Part shown: one piece after another, positions 19,121 through 25,511 of the stretch
How the letters are laid out: each line of letters begins with the position of its first letter
Position numbering within the stretch: the stretch's first letter is position 1
IMG/VR virus record: IMGVR_UViG_3300026518_000054
Span: 1 to 25,904 of that record
Direction: 5' to 3' (one strand)
Length of the DNA stretch: 25,904 nt
From: a virus
Notes under the pieces: model-generated
Seen by the model: only the letters and a program-made list of their open reading frames with translations
Told to the model about the DNA's origin: nothing
Databases searched by the model: none
Program-made: the position numbers and the translations under genes

Positions 19121-21640
19121 TTATTCTTCATTTATTTTTGTGTGTAGTAAAACGCCTTTTCTGTAAAGTCCCAACGCATTAACCTTTTTCAAATTCATAA
19201 ATTGATTATATTTATCAGCTTCCAATATGAAATTATTTTCTTTATTGTTACTATCTAAATATTTTTTAATATATCTAATTTTATAAGACGGCTTTTCGTT
19301 TGTGTTTTCCATTTGATAAACCCAAATTTCAGACGGGTTTTGTAAAATATCTACGCTTAAATTACGATTAACTTCCGTGTTATTGTTAAAAAGGATGTTA
19401 TTTCCTAAATAGTCGGCATATTCAATTCTTTTTTTAAATTTATTTTTTTTAGACAAATCAATACCGCTTGGTAATTTACTCGGTTCTATAACATCGCTTA
19501 AATCATAATCTTTATATGTAATATTGTTTTCTCCATCCCCTGCATAAGCTGTGGGAGTATATTCCCTAACACTTTCCGCCGGGTTATAGTTAAATCCGTC
19601 ATCTACTTTAAAATTTTTCCATTCTTTGCTGTTTCCGTCTTCTACTTTTACAGATTTTAATTTCGCCTTACTTACAGGTATCGTGGTGCAACGGCAATTA
19701 TAACCATTTGGCGGATAAATTCTACCCCATATCGGGTCATTAAGCATAAACACTTTACCATTTAATGCCGCGTGTGTCGGTCTTGTTCTTGCGTCCATTA
19801 CCGCCGTATATCTTAAAGCGGGAAATTGTTTTTCAATTTCTTTGTATTTGTTCCATTGTGCCACGCTATATGTTTGAAATATGTTCGTGCGGTAAATTGT
19901 ATCTAAATGATTACCTTTCAAGTCAAATCCGTATTGTTTTAAATAATTTTCCGCTTGCCTTTTCCACTCCCCTTTTTTATTAAAATTATCTTGTAGCATA
20001 TCATAAACGGCACTTGTGATTTTGCGGCTATTGATACCAGCCACCCTAAACGCTGTCGCCTTTGCTTCATTTGTTAAGGATTCAAATTCTTCATCAGTTA
20101 AAACAACCTTATTTTTAAATAATTTTCTCGCTTCTTCAAAAGGTAATAAAGCGCCCGTATAAAGTTTTGCGTCCCCTTTAAATTTATTTAACATTTTTTT
20201 AAACAGTGAATAATTTGTTTTTGTAGCTTCGTATTTTCCTAACAACATCGCATAAAAAAGTGAATAACCTATATTCTCCCCTAATTTTTGCTTAATATCA
20301 AAATAAAAATCATTTAATTGTTTTACCGCAACTTTCGGGTCATCATCTAAATTTTTAAAATTGAAAATAGTTTTAAGTCTTGTTTTATTTGCATTATAAA
20401 CGCTTGTAATTTGTTCCTCTAACGCTTGTGTATGTTCCGGCATATCACTAACATTTGCAAAATCTTCAACATCTTCAAAAGTGCCTTTTGTGTGCTTTTG
20501 ATTTTCTTCCACATTGTTTTGTTTTGTATTGTCATCTTCTTCGGTGTTTTGGTCGTCAATCTTTTGGTCTTCATCGCTGTCGTAAAAACTAAAAATAGGC
20601 ATTTCAACATCCGCCCCGAAATTTAACAATACTAACGGCTTAATTAAATAATTTTGTATAGTGTTTGCATAGCTTTTCAAGTCCGCTTCCACCAATAATT
20701 TTAAAATATCTAAATTAACCTCATTACTTGCCTTACTACCAAATTTTGTATCATCCATTAATTGCGGGTTTCCCAAGTATATTTTTGTTATTTGTTTATC
20801 CGATATTTCAATAAAACTTTTAAAACTGTCTTTGTCAGGCTTTGTTTCAAGTGCTGTTATTTCTTCTTCTTTATCTATCACCGCACTGCTCCCGCTTTGG
20901 ACGGCTTTCAATATGCTTGTTTTATTATTTATTTCATTTTCTACATTCTCATCATCTTCATCCGCTATTGCCTTATATATAAGCGGTGCAAGTCCGTATT
21001 TTTGTAATGCTGTAAGCCAATATGTCCAGCCCTTTTTTTTAAATTGCCAATACCAAAAACAACTTGCATTCAAAGGTCGCCCATATGGGTTGCTATCATC
21101 AAGGTTATTGTAAGAAAATATCATAAATTTATACTCTGGTGCTTCTTGTAACGCTCCAAATTTGTCACGATATAATAAAGCCCCGTTTCCTTTAAATGCA
21201 AATCTCAACGGATTTCTTCTTTTTATTTCACTTATTACTATTTTCCCGTTTTCGTCAAATTCCCAAATAATCTCTAATACCGCATATCCTATTTGCATAC
21301 CCACAAAAAGCCCGTCAATAATTTTTGGAATATCTACATTTTTATTAAAAACATCCGTTACAAAATTAACAACTTCTTCATCATCCCCCGTAACTTTCCA
21401 ATTATAACTCTTTGCAATTTCTTTTCTTTTGTTTGCAACCGCTAAAATTTGCGGGTCATCTAACATATCAATCAACACATCATATTTAACGCCCGCTTCG
21501 TCAAGTATCTTATTTGCATTCGGTAAAATATAAAAATAATTTAATAAAAATTCATTACTTATTTCACTCGTTAAAAGTTCTACATTTTCGTCAATCGGTG
21601 CCGTATTTGTAGCCTTTATTTTTTTATTGTTACTTGCCAT
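19121..21640 (-). CDS. Portal (DUF935) - minor head protein (gp7/F) - PBECR2-like nuclease fusion
   Basis: An 839-residue single frame joining three parts that are usually separate. Residues 20-350 match the Mu gp29-like portal (DUF935): MLDDPQILAVANKRKEIA (59-76), YAVLEIIWEFDENG (119-132) and LGNPQLMDDTKFGSKAS (289-305). An acidic linker lies at 353-380. Residues about 410-660 are the SPP1 gp7/Mu F head morphogenesis domain, ending in MDARTRPTHAALNGK (615-629) and PPNGYNCRC (643-651). Residues 740-832 (YADYLGNNILF, LQNPSEIWVYQ, YKIRYIKKYL, LGLYRKGVLLH) resemble the PBECR2 RNase-like domain that closes many phage head proteins. The portal would be in the ring at one vertex; the tail domain may enter the cell with DNA. 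Confidence 0.85.
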   Translation of the reverse strand: MASNNKKIKATNTAPIDENVELLTSEISNEFLLNYFYILPNANKILDEAGVKYDVLIDMLDDPQILAVANKRKEIAKSYNWKVTGDDEEVVNFVTDVFNKNVDIPKIIDGLFVGMQIGYAVLEIIWEFDENGKIVISEIKRRNPLRFAFKGNGALLYRDKFGALQEAPEYKFMIFSYNNLDDSNPYGRPLNASCFWYWQFKKKGWTYWLTALQKYGLAPLIYKAIADEDDENVENEINNKTSILKAVQSGSSAVIDKEEEITALETKPDKDSFKSFIEISDKQITKIYLGNPQLMDDTKFGSKASNEVNLDILKLLVEADLKSYANTIQNYLIKPLVLLNFGADVEMPIFSFYDSDEDQKIDDQNTEEDDNTKQNNVEENQKHTKGTFEDVEDFANVSDMPEHTQALEEQITSVYNANKTRLKTIFNFKNLDDDPKVAVKQLNDFYFDIKQKLGENIGYSLFYAMLLGKYEATKTNYSLFKKMLNKFKGDAKLYTGALLPFEEARKLFKNKVVLTDEEFESLTNEAKATAFRVAGINSRKITSAVYDMLQDNFNKKGEWKRQAENYLKQYGFDLKGNHLDTIYRTNIFQTYSVAQWNKYKEIEKQFPALRYTAVMDARTRPTHAALNGKVFMLNDPIWGRIYPPNGYNCRCTTIPVSKAKLKSVKVEDGNSKEWKNFKVDDGFNYNPAESVREYTPTAYAGDGENNITYKDYDLSDVIEPSKLPSGIDLSKKNKFKKRIEYADYLGNNILFNNNTEVNRNLSVDILQNPSEIWVYQMENTNEKPSYKIRYIKKYLDSNNKENNFILEADKYNQFMNLKKVNALGLYRKGVLLHTKINEE

Positions 21641-21645
21641 TTAAA

Positions 21646-21666
21646 GCCCCTTTTTTTAGAATTATA
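21646..21666 (-). promoter_or_regulatory. -10 box and RBS before the portal fusion
   Basis: The minus strand reads TTGGTATAATTCTAAAAAAAGGGGC; extended -10 TGGTATAAT with TATAAT at 21661-21666. It overlaps the stop codon of terL. Confidence 0.5.
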
Positions 21667-23014
21667 CCAATACAGGCTTAATTCTTTTCTTTTTCGGTGT
21701 AATTAATTCATCTACTAAATCGGACAATGTATCAACGATATCATCGTGCGTTCCATCCGGGAAATTTTCCAATTCATCTAAAAAAGCCCCTATCCAATCA
21801 GCCCTAATAATTTTAATCCTATTGTTTTCCGCTTCTGCACTTGCGGGTAAAGCCCTTGTTACTTTGTCTTTTGTAGGCTTAACGACTTTAACAGGGTATC
21901 CCCTAATAATATTTTTTAAATCAGATACAACAAATTTTCCGCCCGCTGGGTCTTGCGGTATCCTTTGCGTTACTTCTTTTCCGTCTTGTCTTGTTATATT
22001 TTTAAAGCGTTTTTTTAATTTATTCGGACTTATCCTATCTCTAAACATATCGGTTATATAAATATTCCCGTCTTCCCCTAAAAAGCCTTTCAACCCGACC
22101 GTATAATCAGGGTCATTTTCCCCATTGTCTTCCGTATATGCAAAGTCCCAAGCTCTAACGATTTTTTTATATGCTATCTTTTCAATTTCTTCCGGTTCAA
22201 TTATTTCAAAATATTCCCTTTTAAAATAAAGCCCCGCACTTTCTTTTATATTCCAATTACCGCCCAAAAGTCTCTCCCGTTCAACTTTCGGTAACGCCAT
22301 TAAATTTGCTAAATAAGATGGGTCGGCTTTCATAAGGATTTCATTATCATAAAGCGTTGCACTAATAAATGTTATACTTTTTGGAATGCTGCCTTTATAT
22401 CTATTTTGCAATTTTTCTTTTGTGTCTGCAAATATAAGCTCATTATTTAGATTAATAAAATATCTAATAACGCCGTCCCGTTCTTTTATCGGAAGCCCGT
22501 CTTCTCCAATCCACCAATCAATCAAATCCCTAACCCAGCTATCGGCTTCCGGGTTGGTGGTAGCTCTAATATAAGGCTTAATACCGCTGCAAACGCTCCT
22601 ATTCCTTGATAACATATAAAAAAACTGCTTTTTTGTGAAGTGTGTGAGTTCGTCAAACATAATAAGTGGAATTTGACTACCTTGCCATTTATAAACATCT
22701 TTTACCGCGTCTAAGTGTCCAAATTTTATTTTTGCTCCGTTTGGAAATTCAAAAGAATAATCGGAAGTTTTTGGCTCTGCTTGTAATAAAGGGTATATCT
22801 CGCTTGCCGTATCCCAAAGCCCGCCTGCACTTTTTACTTGATTAAGGTTACGCCTGAATATAACGGCATTAAAACAACTTTTATCAATATGATATAACGG
22901 TTCTAATAGTAAAGCATAAGTTTTTCCGCCCCCTGCACTTCCACCATATATCGCAATATCAGCCGTGCTTTTTAAGAATTTTTCCTGTTTTGGCTGCGGT
23001 TTTAACTCTAATAT
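21662..23014 (-). CDS. terL: Terminase large subunit with a non-standard start
   Basis: The frame is open from 23026 to the stop at 21662. ATG 22660 cannot be the start, because the ATPase motifs lie before it: Walker A GGSAGGGKT (24-32) and Walker B IMFDE (118-122) in a 450-residue product counted from ATA 23014. The frame upstream of Walker A has no ATG, GTG or TTG; ATA 23014 sits six bases after AAAAAGGA and is the best start. The nuclease half has WDFAYTED (about 289-296), a second acidic cluster NDPDYT (300-305) and HDDIVDTLSDL near the end. The protein drives DNA into the head and cuts it. Alternatively the start codon is a mutated ATG and the gene is silent. Confidence 0.9.
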   Translation of the reverse strand: MLELKPQPKQEKFLKSTADIAIYGGSAGGGKTYALLLEPLYHIDKSCFNAVIFRRNLNQVKSAGGLWDTASEIYPLLQAEPKTSDYSFEFPNGAKIKFGHLDAVKDVYKWQGSQIPLIMFDELTHFTKKQFFYMLSRNRSVCSGIKPYIRATTNPEADSWVRDLIDWWIGEDGLPIKERDGVIRYFINLNNELIFADTKEKLQNRYKGSIPKSITFISATLYDNEILMKADPSYLANLMALPKVERERLLGGNWNIKESAGLYFKREYFEIIEPEEIEKIAYKKIVRAWDFAYTEDNGENDPDYTVGLKGFLGEDGNIYITDMFRDRISPNKLKKRFKNITRQDGKEVTQRIPQDPAGGKFVVSDLKNIIRGYPVKVVKPTKDKVTRALPASAEAENNRIKIIRADWIGAFLDELENFPDGTHDDIVDTLSDLVDELITPKKKRIKPVLV

Positions 23015-23052
23015 GCTTAATCCTTTTTATATTGTGTCTATTTTGTCAAAAG

Positions 23053-23418
23053 TCAATCTTCTTTTTTTGGCAAATAAATATTAATAGCCTTTTCACTGCT
23101 AAATTTTTCCACTTCTCTATTTTCAACTTCAAATCTTTCGGAATATCCCCTGCTTTTCCCTTTTGTTTTTAAAAAGAAAATTATACAAGTATTGTCTCCC
23201 TCTTTTATTTTTTTCATTAAGATTGTTTCTGCAAAATCCAAAAGGCTTTCTTGCATTTCTTCAACTTTTGTTTTAAACTTTTTGTCTTTGTTATACCAAT
23301 TATAATAAGTTTGTCTATTTATCCCTATTTTTTTACAAGTTGCACTAACATTTCCTGCACTCGTTTCAAAAGCCTTTAAAAAAGCCTCTTTTAATTTTTT
23401 AGTGTTTGGTCTAGTCAT
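23053..23418 (-). CDS. terS: Terminase small subunit
   Basis: A 121-residue protein with an N-terminal helix-turn-helix (FETSAGNVSATCKKIGINRQTYYNWY, about residues 18-43), like the phBC6A51-type small terminases, then a helical oligomerisation part (EEMQESLLDFAETILMKKIKEG) and FFLKTKGKSRGY, which is common in this group. It would recognise the packaging site and hand the DNA to TerL, encoded 38 bases downstream. It follows the ABC-GNAT gene. Confidence 0.85.
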   Translation of the reverse strand: MTRPNTKKLKEAFLKAFETSAGNVSATCKKIGINRQTYYNWYNKDKKFKTKVEEMQESLLDFAETILMKKIKEGDNTCIIFFLKTKGKSRGYSERFEVENREVEKFSSEKAINIYLPKKED

Positions 23419-23468: not shown

Positions 23469-24560
23469 TTAATTATTTTTAATATATTCAAAAGTTGCAG
23501 TTAATCTATCAATTGAAAAATTTGTTCCATAAAATATGCTTTTTTTTGACGGTTTTCCCGTAATTCTTGACGGTTTTCTAATCATTTTCCAAAAATTACT
23601 TTTATTTAAACTATATATAAAAACAGGTTGAGAAGTTACAATTCTTATTCTATAATTTTCATCTGCATACATTTTAGCTATTTTATTCAAAAATGATTTT
23701 CCTATTCCTATTCCTTGATAATCAGGCAAAACTACAATTCTATGTATTCTTTTAATATTTTTAACTTTCGGGTGAGGAGAATGTATCACACTACACCAAG
23801 CAACTGGAATATTATTATATTCAGCTATATATTTATTAGCAGAATTATTATGTTTTTTGCTTAAATAATGATAGTCGCTAAACATTTTCCATTCTTCATT
23901 TTTTGCTTTTCTAATACACAATTCAATTTTTGGTCTGCAATAGGGTAAATCCTTTTTTAGTTTAAATTCTTTTTTATCAACAAAATAAATCCAATCAGGT
24001 TCTAACCAATCCAATATATCAAAATGACAACTAACAGCAATAAACTTTTTATTTTCTTTTCTTATATATTTTGCAATTGCATAACTACCAACTTTTGCAA
24101 CTTGTCTATCTACTACACTTGTAAATTCATCATAAATTACAGGTTTATCAATTTCTAAAATCAATCTCGCTAATTCAACTCTCATTTTTTGTCCATTACT
24201 TAAAACATTAAAAGACTTTAACCAATCAGGAGGACTGCTAAAACCAACTTTTGATAAAACTTCAACTATTTTTTTTGGTGAAAATTTTTTATTAAAATTA
24301 TCTAAAATCGTTTTATTATTATCCCATTCAAATCCTTCAAAATAATAAAAATCTTTAAAAACTTCTTTTGGTATCGTTGTTTTACCACTCCCACTAGTTC
24401 CTACAATAACACCTATATTCCAATCAATATTTTCAATAGGAATATTTACATTAAATTCTTTTATTATTTCTTTTTTTTCAATATCAAACATTCCTTTTAC
24501 TTTTTCGTTTCTGAAACTTTGTGGAATTATATTTTTTTTTACAAACTTTGCACTCGGCAT
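23469..24560 (-). CDS. ABC-type ATPase fused to a GNAT domain (DNA-modification candidate)
   Basis: A 363-residue soluble protein. Residues 45-200 hold all motifs of an ABC ATPase in a compact form: Walker A GTSGSGKT (54-61), signature LSNGQ (120-124), Walker B VIYDE (141-145, with E145), D-loop SVVD (148-151) and the switch histidine H179 in VSCHFD. Residues 211-360 form a GNAT domain: WKMFSDYHYLSKKH (224-237), RIVVLPDYQGIGIGKSF (274-290), where QGIGIG is the acetyl-CoA pyrophosphate loop, then VTSQPVFIYSLNKSNFWKM. There is no membrane segment, so it is not a transporter. It overlaps the ParB gene by 22 bases. Phage Mu Mom, which modifies adenine, is also GNAT-like, so a base modification role is possible but unproven. 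Confidence 0.8.
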   Translation of the reverse strand: MPSAKFVKKNIIPQSFRNEKVKGMFDIEKKEIIKEFNVNIPIENIDWNIGVIVGTSGSGKTTIPKEVFKDFYYFEGFEWDNNKTILDNFNKKFSPKKIVEVLSKVGFSSPPDWLKSFNVLSNGQKMRVELARLILEIDKPVIYDEFTSVVDRQVAKVGSYAIAKYIRKENKKFIAVSCHFDILDWLEPDWIYFVDKKEFKLKKDLPYCRPKIELCIRKAKNEEWKMFSDYHYLSKKHNNSANKYIAEYNNIPVAWCSVIHSPHPKVKNIKRIHRIVVLPDYQGIGIGKSFLNKIAKMYADENYRIRIVTSQPVFIYSLNKSNFWKMIRKPSRITGKPSKKSIFYGTNFSIDRLTATFEYIKNN

Positions 24561-25099
24561 TTAAGTCCCCTTTCAATAAATTCATTAAATAATTTTTCTT
24601 GTTCTTCTTCGTTATTACATTCAATTATAATTTCATATTTTTCAATATATTTTTCTTCTTTTATTTCATAATCGTTATCAAAATCAACATTTTTTAAAAT
24701 TTCATCTAATTCATCTCCACTAAAACCTAAAATACCCATATCAAAACCAATATTATCAAGCTCACTTAAATCAATAGCAAGTAATTCATTATCCCAAATA
24801 GCCAACTCTGCAAGTTTATTATCAGCTATCCTATAAGCCTTGACCTGTGCTGTTGTCAAATGTTCGGCTCTAATAATCGGCACTTCATCATATTTTAATC
24901 TTTTAAGTGCTTCATATCTTCCGTGTCCCGCTATTAATACATTGTCTTTATCAACTATAAGCGGATTAATAACTCCAAATTCTTTAATACTACTCATAAT
25001 TTTTTCAACCTGCTCCGTTGGATGTTTCTTTTGATTATTTATATATGGAATAACCTCATCTAATTTAATTTTTTCAAATTTAATATCTTTTTTACTCAT
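24539..25099 (-). CDS. ParB-like protein
   Basis: A 186-residue protein. Residues 7-100 match the ParB N-terminal domain: IKLDEVIPYINNQKKHP, IKEFGVINPLIVD (38-50), and the phosphate motif VLIAGHGRYEALKRL (54-68) with R61. The C-terminal part (YEIIIECNNEEEQEKLFNEF, RGLKCRV) is the short domain that often follows ParB in phage proteins linked with methylases and modification genes. It lacks the centromere-binding HTH of chromosomal ParB, so partition is unlikely. Its end overlaps the ABC-GNAT start by 22 bases, and its start overlaps the VRR-NUC end by 8, so the three are probably made together. Confidence 0.85.
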   Translation of the reverse strand: MSKKDIKFEKIKLDEVIPYINNQKKHPTEQVEKIMSSIKEFGVINPLIVDKDNVLIAGHGRYEALKRLKYDEVPIIRAEHLTTAQVKAYRIADNKLAELAIWDNELLAIDLSELDNIGFDMGILGFSGDELDEILKNVDFDNDYEIKEEKYIEKYEIIIECNNEEEQEKLFNEFIERGLKCRVQSL

Positions 25100-25511
25100 T
25101 TTCTTCCTTTTTTAATATTTTATCTAATTTTTCTTTGAATTCATTAAAGCCATAAGCCACAAAACTATCACAAGCCGCACTCATTTTAATAGTTTCCAAA
25201 AACTTTTTTTGATTTTCGTTTACTTTTATACCTGCATAGCTAATTTTGCCACTTTTTAATTTTTTACCACTTCTTTTAAGTTCGACAAATATAACCTTAT
25301 CTTTTAATATTATAACCAAATCACTAACGCCTGACCGCTTTCCCATTGCTTTTGCTTTATTCTCAATCTTCATAGCTTTTTCTCTATTGCTACCACTCAT
25401 TAAATTTTCGTTCATAGGTGCAAAAAAGGCAATAATTTTTCCTTGTCTTTCTAAAATTTTTAAATAATTAACGGCTTTTTTTTGTTCTAACTCTTCTAAA
25501 TTTCTTTTCAT
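25092..25511 (-). CDS. VRR-NUC domain nuclease
   Basis: A 139-residue protein with a PD-(D/E)xK fold of the VRR-NUC kind: an N-terminal helix EELEQKKAVNYL (6-17), GKRSGVSDLVIIL (57-69) with D64, VIFVELKRSG (73-82) with E77 and K79, and NENQKKFLETI (98-108) with Q101. VRR-NUC proteins are structure-specific DNA nucleases common in phages near replication or packaging genes. It overlaps its neighbours by 8 and 4 bases. Confidence 0.8.
   Translation of the reverse strand: MKRNLEELEQKKAVNYLKILERQGKIIAFFAPMNENLMSGSNREKAMKIENKAKAMGKRSGVSDLVIILKDKVIFVELKRSGKKLKSGKISYAGIKVNENQKKFLETIKMSAACDSFVAYGFNEFKEKLDKILKKEENE

What the first reader, a model, noticed from the sequence alone, without database searches (positions are those of the whole stretch)
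23469..25099. ParB-like protein coupled to a soluble ABC ATPase-GNAT fusion: possible DNA-modification or DNA-guard module
The 363-residue protein carries every ABC motif (Walker A, LSNGQ, Walker B with Glu, D-loop, H-loop) with no transporter partner, fused to a GNAT domain with an intact acetyl-CoA loop. It overlaps a ParB-like gene by 22 bases. ParB can use CTP to slide on DNA, soluble ABC ATPases such as SMC/MutS/UvrA act on DNA, and Mu Mom is a GNAT-fold enzyme that changes adenine. A plausible reading is an ATP-driven complex that acetylates or otherwise modifies DNA or a DNA-bound protein before packaging, protecting against restriction. The HY pair at 231-232, near the start of the GNAT part, recalls residues I remember as important in Mom; that detail needs checking.
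Basis: partly seen in the sequence, partly recalled or inferred. Interest (0 to 1): 0.75.

Follow-up and report, generated by a model that had tools for sequence, protein, structure and literature searches.

The report
ParB plus ABC-acetyltransferase DNA-modification operon
This phage carries a widespread but untested two-gene unit, a ParB-like protein followed by an ATPase fused to an acetyltransferase, which most likely attaches a small chemical group to DNA bases so that bacterial defences cannot cut the phage genome.

Summary
In detail: a 363-aa ABC ATPase-GNAT fusion (23469-24560, minus) overlaps a ParB-like gene (24539-25099, minus) by 22 bases. It is not an oddity of this phage. The fusion belongs to phrog_11143. 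Of 185 sampled loci, 164 have the same ParB type upstream on the same strand, 92 of them with exactly the same 22-base overlap. One more locus is a ParB-ABC-GNAT triple fusion. All ABC catalytic residues and the His-Tyr pair are invariant in 68 sequences. The GNAT half has an ordinary GNAT fold and is not a Mom-family member; profile comparison with Mom is not significant. Genome context still points to DNA: this ParB type also sits upstream of true Mom-like enzymes in 78 of 81 loci of one Mom subfamily (0 of 82 Mu-type loci), and is fused to DNA methylases in other phages. That ABC-linked GNATs acylate DNA bases was already published as a prediction (Iyer et al. 2021). Best reading: ParB-assisted, ATP-gated acylation of a DNA base, chemistry unknown (confidence 0.6). 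SMC/MutS/UvrA and classical CTP-clamp analogies are not supported. New member of a known, unproven kind; the link to Mom and methylases through ParB may be new.

The parts
23469..24560 (-). ABC ATPase-GNAT fusion protein, 363 aa (phrog_11143); ABC domain about residues 1-206, GNAT about 210-362
24539..25099 (-). ParB-like protein, 186 aa: ParB_N domain plus a short C-terminal domain ending ...GxxCRxxxL; no recognisable helix-turn-helix
24539..24560 (-). 22-base overlap of the ParB 3' end and the ABC-GNAT 5' end, conserved in 92 of 185 loci
23952..24560 (-). ABC domain: Walker A 53-61, signature LSNGQ 120-124, Walker B/Glu 144-145, D-loop 148-152, H-loop His179
23469..23951 (-). GNAT domain: His231-Tyr232 just after the first helix, CoA loop QGIGIG at 282-287
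23053..23418 (-). Small terminase-like gene directly downstream (packaging genes follow)
21662..23026 (-). Large terminase, open frame of 454 codons; no ATG/GTG/TTG at its 5' end
25092..25511 (-). Upstream gene with weak VRR-NUC nuclease similarity, overlapping ParB by 8 bases

Best explanation
A two-gene phage DNA-modification module. The ParB-like protein is a shared partner of base-modifying enzymes that brings the enzyme to phage DNA or holds it there (inferred). The ABC domain pairs with a second copy when ATP binds and so gates or positions the attached GNAT domains on DNA, with hydrolysis resetting the complex (inferred from intact catalytic motifs). The GNAT domain moves an acyl group from acyl-CoA onto an exocyclic amino group of a DNA base, adenine N6 being the likeliest because the other partners of this ParB type are N6/N4 methylases and Mom (inferred). 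The modified base would shield the genome from restriction, and would be made around the time of packaging since the terminase genes follow (inferred). Shown here: gene structure, motifs, predicted folds, conserved pairing and the shared ParB partner. Not shown: any chemistry, ATPase activity, DNA binding or protection.
For: ParB of one type lies upstream on the same strand in 164 of 185 ABC-GNAT loci; one further locus (L124) is a triple fusion (ParB 54-219, ABC-GNAT 244-593). The exact 22-base overlap occurs in 92 loci from phages and prophages of distant hosts and is spread over the family tree. The same ParB profile finds ParB upstream of Mom-like genes in 78 of 81 Appa-type loci (51 of them with at most 60 bases of overlap or 100 of gap) and in 0 of 82 Mu-type Mom loci. 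This ParB type is fused to N6_N4_Mtase in Streptococcus phage Javan112 and Vibrio phage D93. An ASCH protein (a domain that, from memory of Iyer et al. 2013, is predicted to read modified bases) follows the GNAT gene in MismyG. In Pseudomonas phage Komp_PAO1_1 and Porphyromonas phages the gene follows the tail genes, near the genome end in the latter, which recalls the place of mom in Mu. Enterococcus phages carry either ABC+GNAT (9184) or a Mom-like gene (vB_EfaS_159) just after the DNA polymerase. Iyer et al. made the same prediction for pT24, whose homologue is 37% identical to ours.
Against: The GNAT half keeps a normal acyl-CoA loop and matches protein and small-molecule acetyltransferases best; it is not a Mom homologue by profile. 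Nearly half of the chosen named-phage loci lack ParB nearby (9 of 20), so ParB is not always needed close by. No phage with this gene was found with measured modified bases. Context evidence cannot separate modification of DNA from acylation of a DNA-bound protein.
Confidence: 0.6

Rival explanations
1. Protein acylation: the GNAT acetylates a DNA-bound protein (host nucleoid protein, RNA polymerase, terminase or ParB itself), with ATP-driven ABC action and ParB as adaptor. It would change host takeover or packaging and not the DNA bases.
For: The closest solved structures to the GNAT half are protein acetyltransferases such as RimI and Naa50; the canonical CoA loop is intact; a phage GNAT that acetylates RNA polymerase (Rac) is cited in PMC7824862.
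Against: The same ParB type is shared with Mom-like enzymes and DNA methylases, which act on DNA bases; an ASCH neighbour and a mom-like genome position in some phages.
Confidence: 0.22
2. A restriction or anti-competitor device: the ABC-GNAT with ParB acts on incoming or host DNA (nicking, unwinding or tagging) and not on phage DNA, with the upstream VRR-NUC-like gene as nuclease partner.
For: A VRR-NUC-like gene overlaps ParB by 8 bases in the window; ParB-like domains are often annotated as nucleases.
Against: The VRR-NUC-like gene was not seen as a recurrent neighbour among the clusters examined; the VRR-NUC match is below Pfam's cut-off; the GNAT half has no nuclease domain match.
Confidence: 0.07
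3. The ABC domain is part of a transporter whose membrane partner is encoded elsewhere, as many annotations claim (iron siderophore transporter, hemin importer).
For: The fold is closest to transporter NBDs such as HrtA and MetN, and database annotations say so.
Against: No membrane partner in the window or among the recurrent neighbours examined; fusion to GNAT; conserved pairing with ParB.
Confidence: 0.03

Closest known systems
ABC ATPase-linked GNAT family predicted by Iyer et al. (2013, 2021; Tenacibaculum phage pT24) to acylate a DNA base
   Same: Same ABC plus GNAT architecture; pT24's gene pair is our hit H16 at 37% identity over 92%.
   Different: Fused in the window, split in pT24; the window has ParB directly upstream, while no ParB was found within 4 kb in pT24. 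The passage read does not mention ParB; the 2013 paper was not readable here.
Mom of phage Mu (PF25680), adenine N6 modification
   Same: GNAT-fold enzyme by literature; invariant His-Tyr pair; one Mom subfamily shares the upstream ParB type.
   Different: No significant profile similarity; lacks Mom's EL-R and SxAD motifs; keeps the canonical CoA loop; has an ABC domain.
ParB-N6/N4 DNA methyltransferase fusions of phages (phrog_498)
   Same: Same ParB-type N-terminal domain (3e-48 to phrog_498; PF02195 plus PF01555 in L227 and, PF02195 weakly, in L228).
   Different: The catalytic partner is a methylase, fused to ParB and not in an overlapping gene.
Canonical ParB/Spo0J/Noc CTPase clamps
   Same: ParB_N domain; weak sequence match to solved ParB, Spo0J and Noc.
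   Different: No recognisable helix-turn-helix, GHGRYEA in place of GERRxRA, different C-terminal domain.
Soluble enzyme-remodelling ABC proteins (PhnK of C-P lyase, A2 of methyl-coenzyme M reductase)
   Same: Compact NBD fold without membrane partner.
   Different: Those act on metabolic enzyme complexes; no GNAT or ParB partner.

Membership tests
phrog_11143 (phage ABC-GNAT family) | Full-length profile match | tested here: met
   8.4e-102, residues 9-361 of 363
ABC ATPase superfamily | Walker A, signature, Walker B/Glu, D-loop and H-loop intact | tested here: met
   All invariant in 68 sequences; PF00005 above cut-off; fold Z about 15
ABC transporter | Membrane-domain partner encoded nearby | tested here: not met
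   None in the window or among the recurrent neighbours examined
GNAT superfamily | GNAT fold and acyl-CoA binding loop | tested here: met
   PF00583 above cut-off; model pLDDT 91, best PDB matches are GNATs at Z 13-15; QGIGIG
Mom (PF25680) | Match to the Mom profile | tested here: not met
   No PF25680 match at E up to 1, while all 7 Mom proteins match it; hhalign E 0.071
Mom (PF25680) | Invariant His-Tyr pair near the start of the GNAT fold | tested here: met
   H231-Y232 invariant in 68 sequences; H58-Y59 invariant in 7 Mom proteins; the local profile alignment pairs them
Mom (PF25680) | EL-R and SxAD motifs | tested here: not met
   Invariant in the Mom alignment (E108 L109 R111, S146 A148 D149), absent from the window protein
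Mom (PF25680) | Structural similarity to the Mom crystal structure 8bv8 | tested here: inconclusive
   8bv8 exists but is not among the 50 rows shown for the GNAT model
ParB_N domain family | ParB N-terminal domain | tested here: met
   PF02195 4.4e-8, above cut-off
Canonical ParB CTPase clamp | GERRxRA motif and central helix-turn-helix | tested here: not met
   GHGRYEA in place of the motif; only ParB_N matched in 186 aa
Published ABC-GNAT DNA-acylation prediction | Homology to the pT24 ABC+GNAT proteins | tested here: met
   37% identity over 92%; text in PMC7824862
DNA base-modifying enzyme | Modified nucleoside produced in DNA | not testable with these tools
   Needs mass spectrometry of virion DNA

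The most novel reading that the evidence does not exclude
ParB-like proteins of this type are a general partner that serves three unrelated classes of phage base modifiers (DNA methylases, Mom-like enzymes and ABC-GNATs), and the ABC-GNAT makes a still unknown acylated base in an ATP-dependent way, which to my knowledge no characterised DNA-modification enzyme does.
Probability: 0.4. Interest if true: 0.78.

Novelty: new member of a known kind. Interest (0 to 1): 0.5.

Why it matters
It would add a new DNA base chemistry and give ParB-like proteins a second job, as partners of base-modifying enzymes. The claim is directly testable: named phages with the unit exist, and mass spectrometry of their DNA would settle it.

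Tried and rejected
Mom homology of the GNAT half by profile: not significant. Mom 8bv8 among structural matches: not in the 50 rows shown. SMC/MutS/UvrA kinship of the ABC domain: not among the rows shown; the list is transporter-type NBDs, PhnK and A2. Sequence similarity between the Enterococcus 9184 GNAT and the Mom-like protein at the matching place in vB_EfaS_159: none beyond chance. Papers naming COG2401 or its description: none in the library. Iyer et al. 2013, Iyer et al. 2009, Kaminska and Bujnicki 2008 and a paper on Mom active-site residues are not held, so whether ParB was already noted with ABC-GNAT, and which Mom residues were mutated, could not be checked. The first ABC filter used the wrong threshold and printed nothing; repeated. 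ParB frequency next to ordinary phage GNATs was not measured; Mu-type Mom (0 of 82) is the only negative control.

Full report
WHAT IS THERE. The window is a 25.9 kb virus record from IMG/VR with its genes on the minus strand: VRR-NUC-like, ParB-like, ABC-GNAT, small terminase, large terminase, Mu-type portal fused to an F-like domain, protease, capsid and further late genes. The ABC-GNAT matches phrog_11143 over its full length (8.4e-102), and the ParB matches phrog_620 and the ParB part of phrog_498, a DNA methyltransferase family.

ANATOMY. In a 68-sequence alignment the ABC catalytic residues (K60, S121, G123, D144, E145, D151, H179) are invariant, as are W224, F227, H231, Y232, R274 and W324 of the GNAT half. 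AlphaFold models are confident (full length pLDDT 93.2; GNAT alone 91.4). Residues 1-206 align with transporter-type nucleotide-binding domains, PhnK of C-P lyase and the A2 component of methyl-coenzyme M reductase (Z about 15; the chain with the best sequence score is the A2 one, 8s7v). Residues 210-362 align with ordinary GNATs such as RimI, IAA acetyltransferase and Naa50 (Z 13-15). In Lactococcus, Streptococcus, Oenococcus, Enterococcus and Thomasclavelia phages and in pT24 the two domains are separate neighbouring genes, which marks the natural domain border.

CONSERVED PAIRING. Relatives were collected from named phages (78 records), viral contigs (281 found, 80 kept) and one-per-species genomes (319 found, 80 kept). 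Of 185 loci examined, 164 have the same ParB type upstream on the same strand and one is a ParB-ABC-GNAT triple fusion; 143 of the 164 overlap or lie within 100 bases, and 92 have exactly the 22-base overlap of the window. The overlap is scattered over the family tree, so it is probably ancestral. Nine of 20 chosen named-phage loci have no ParB nearby, pT24, P12024S, PX29, VmeM-32, Porphyromonas and Komp_PAO1_1 among them. The loci are not independent samples: the kept ones are the most similar, and at least one contig appears in two collections (L106 and L128). Many genome loci look like prophages: a large-terminase homologue follows on the same strand in at least 58 of 159 loci with 2 kb of room, and a terminase cluster occurs in 102 loci by looser clustering.

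LINK TO DNA MODIFICATION. Microbacterium phage Appa has ParB overlapping a Mom-like gene. In 80 viral loci of that Mom subfamily plus Appa, ParB found with the same profile lies upstream in 78 of 81, the other three having little upstream sequence; in 82 Mu-type Mom loci it was never found although 81 had room. In that subfamily the ParB examples printed end in a CPxC zinc-ribbon-like tail and not in the GxxCRxxxL end seen next to ABC-GNAT. The ParB type is also fused to N6/N4 DNA methylases. An ASCH gene follows in MismyG, and a formyltransferase gene follows in one clade (Komp_PAO1_1, Porphyromonas, Axumite, L019). Enterococcus phages carry either ABC+GNAT or a Mom-like gene after the DNA polymerase, though the two proteins are not alike in sequence. 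Together this makes DNA the likeliest target, and adenine N6 or cytosine N4 the likeliest site by analogy; this is inference.

THE MOM QUESTION. But the overall profile comparison is not significant (probability 0.8%, E 0.071, 42 columns), the Pfam Mom profile does not match the window protein, and the ABC-GNAT keeps the CoA loop and lacks the EL-R and SxAD motifs of Mom. So it may work like Mom, but it is not a member of the Mom family by the tests made here.

THE PARB. Only ParB_N is recognised, with GHGRYEA where canonical ParB has GERRxRA, no recognisable helix-turn-helix, and a conserved short C-terminal domain (E164, Q167, G178, C181, R182 conserved). CTP-driven sliding is therefore not established.

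PRIOR KNOWLEDGE. Iyer et al. 2021 (PMC7824862) state that they had earlier identified a GNAT coupled with an ABC ATPase, predicted to carry out an uncharacterised acyl modification of a DNA base and present in pT24. The pT24 proteins are homologous to the window's. The core idea is therefore published as a prediction. I found no paper in the open library on the ParB partner, the 22-base overlap or the ParB shared with Mom-like genes, but the 2013 source was not readable.

VERDICT. Observation confirmed; interpretation partly supported. Best explanation: ParB-assisted, ATP-gated acylation of phage DNA bases (0.6); protein acylation is the main rival (0.22). No step of chemistry or protection has been shown.

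Noticed in passing
window 21662-23026 (-): The large terminase frame is 454 codons long but has no ATG, GTG or TTG before the Walker A region; an AAAAAGGA sequence sits just upstream of an ATA codon. Candidate non-standard start codon or a base error in the record.
   Followed up: partly
L124:3269-5104 (Gemmataceae MAG): A single 611-aa ORF joins ParB (54-219) and ABC-GNAT (244-593).
   Followed up: partly
L019, L020, L021, L022: A formyltransferase-like gene (PF00551) follows ABC-GNAT in one clade: Komp_PAO1_1, Porphyromonas phages, Gordonia Axumite (annotated tRNA-methyltransferase there) and L019; a possible second modification step.
   Followed up: partly
L279-L358 and L190: ParB-like gene upstream of Mom-like genes in 78 of 81 loci, with a CPxC zinc-ribbon-like C-terminus in the examples seen; Mu has the small Com gene overlapping mom at this place.
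   Followed up: partly
L029 (Rhizobium phage RHEph10) 1945-6056: ParB-like genes close to two genes annotated as ABC transporter proteins; the first matches the window's ABC domain but has no GNAT. Related ABC-only proteins occur in SSU5-like and Klebsiella phage-plasmids.
   Followed up: no
Aeromonas phage PX29, 36309-36881 and 53140-54318 of the record: The same phage carries both a Mom-like gene and an ABC-GNAT gene.
   Followed up: no
window 19121-21640 (-): Portal (Mu gp29-like) and Mu F-like domains are fused in one 839-aa protein with a weak PBECR2-like tail.
   Followed up: no
L010 4001-5071 and 3468-4022 (Pseudoalteromonas phage SL25): The public record has no gene annotated over its ABC-GNAT and ParB pair, although both frames are open.
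   Followed up: no
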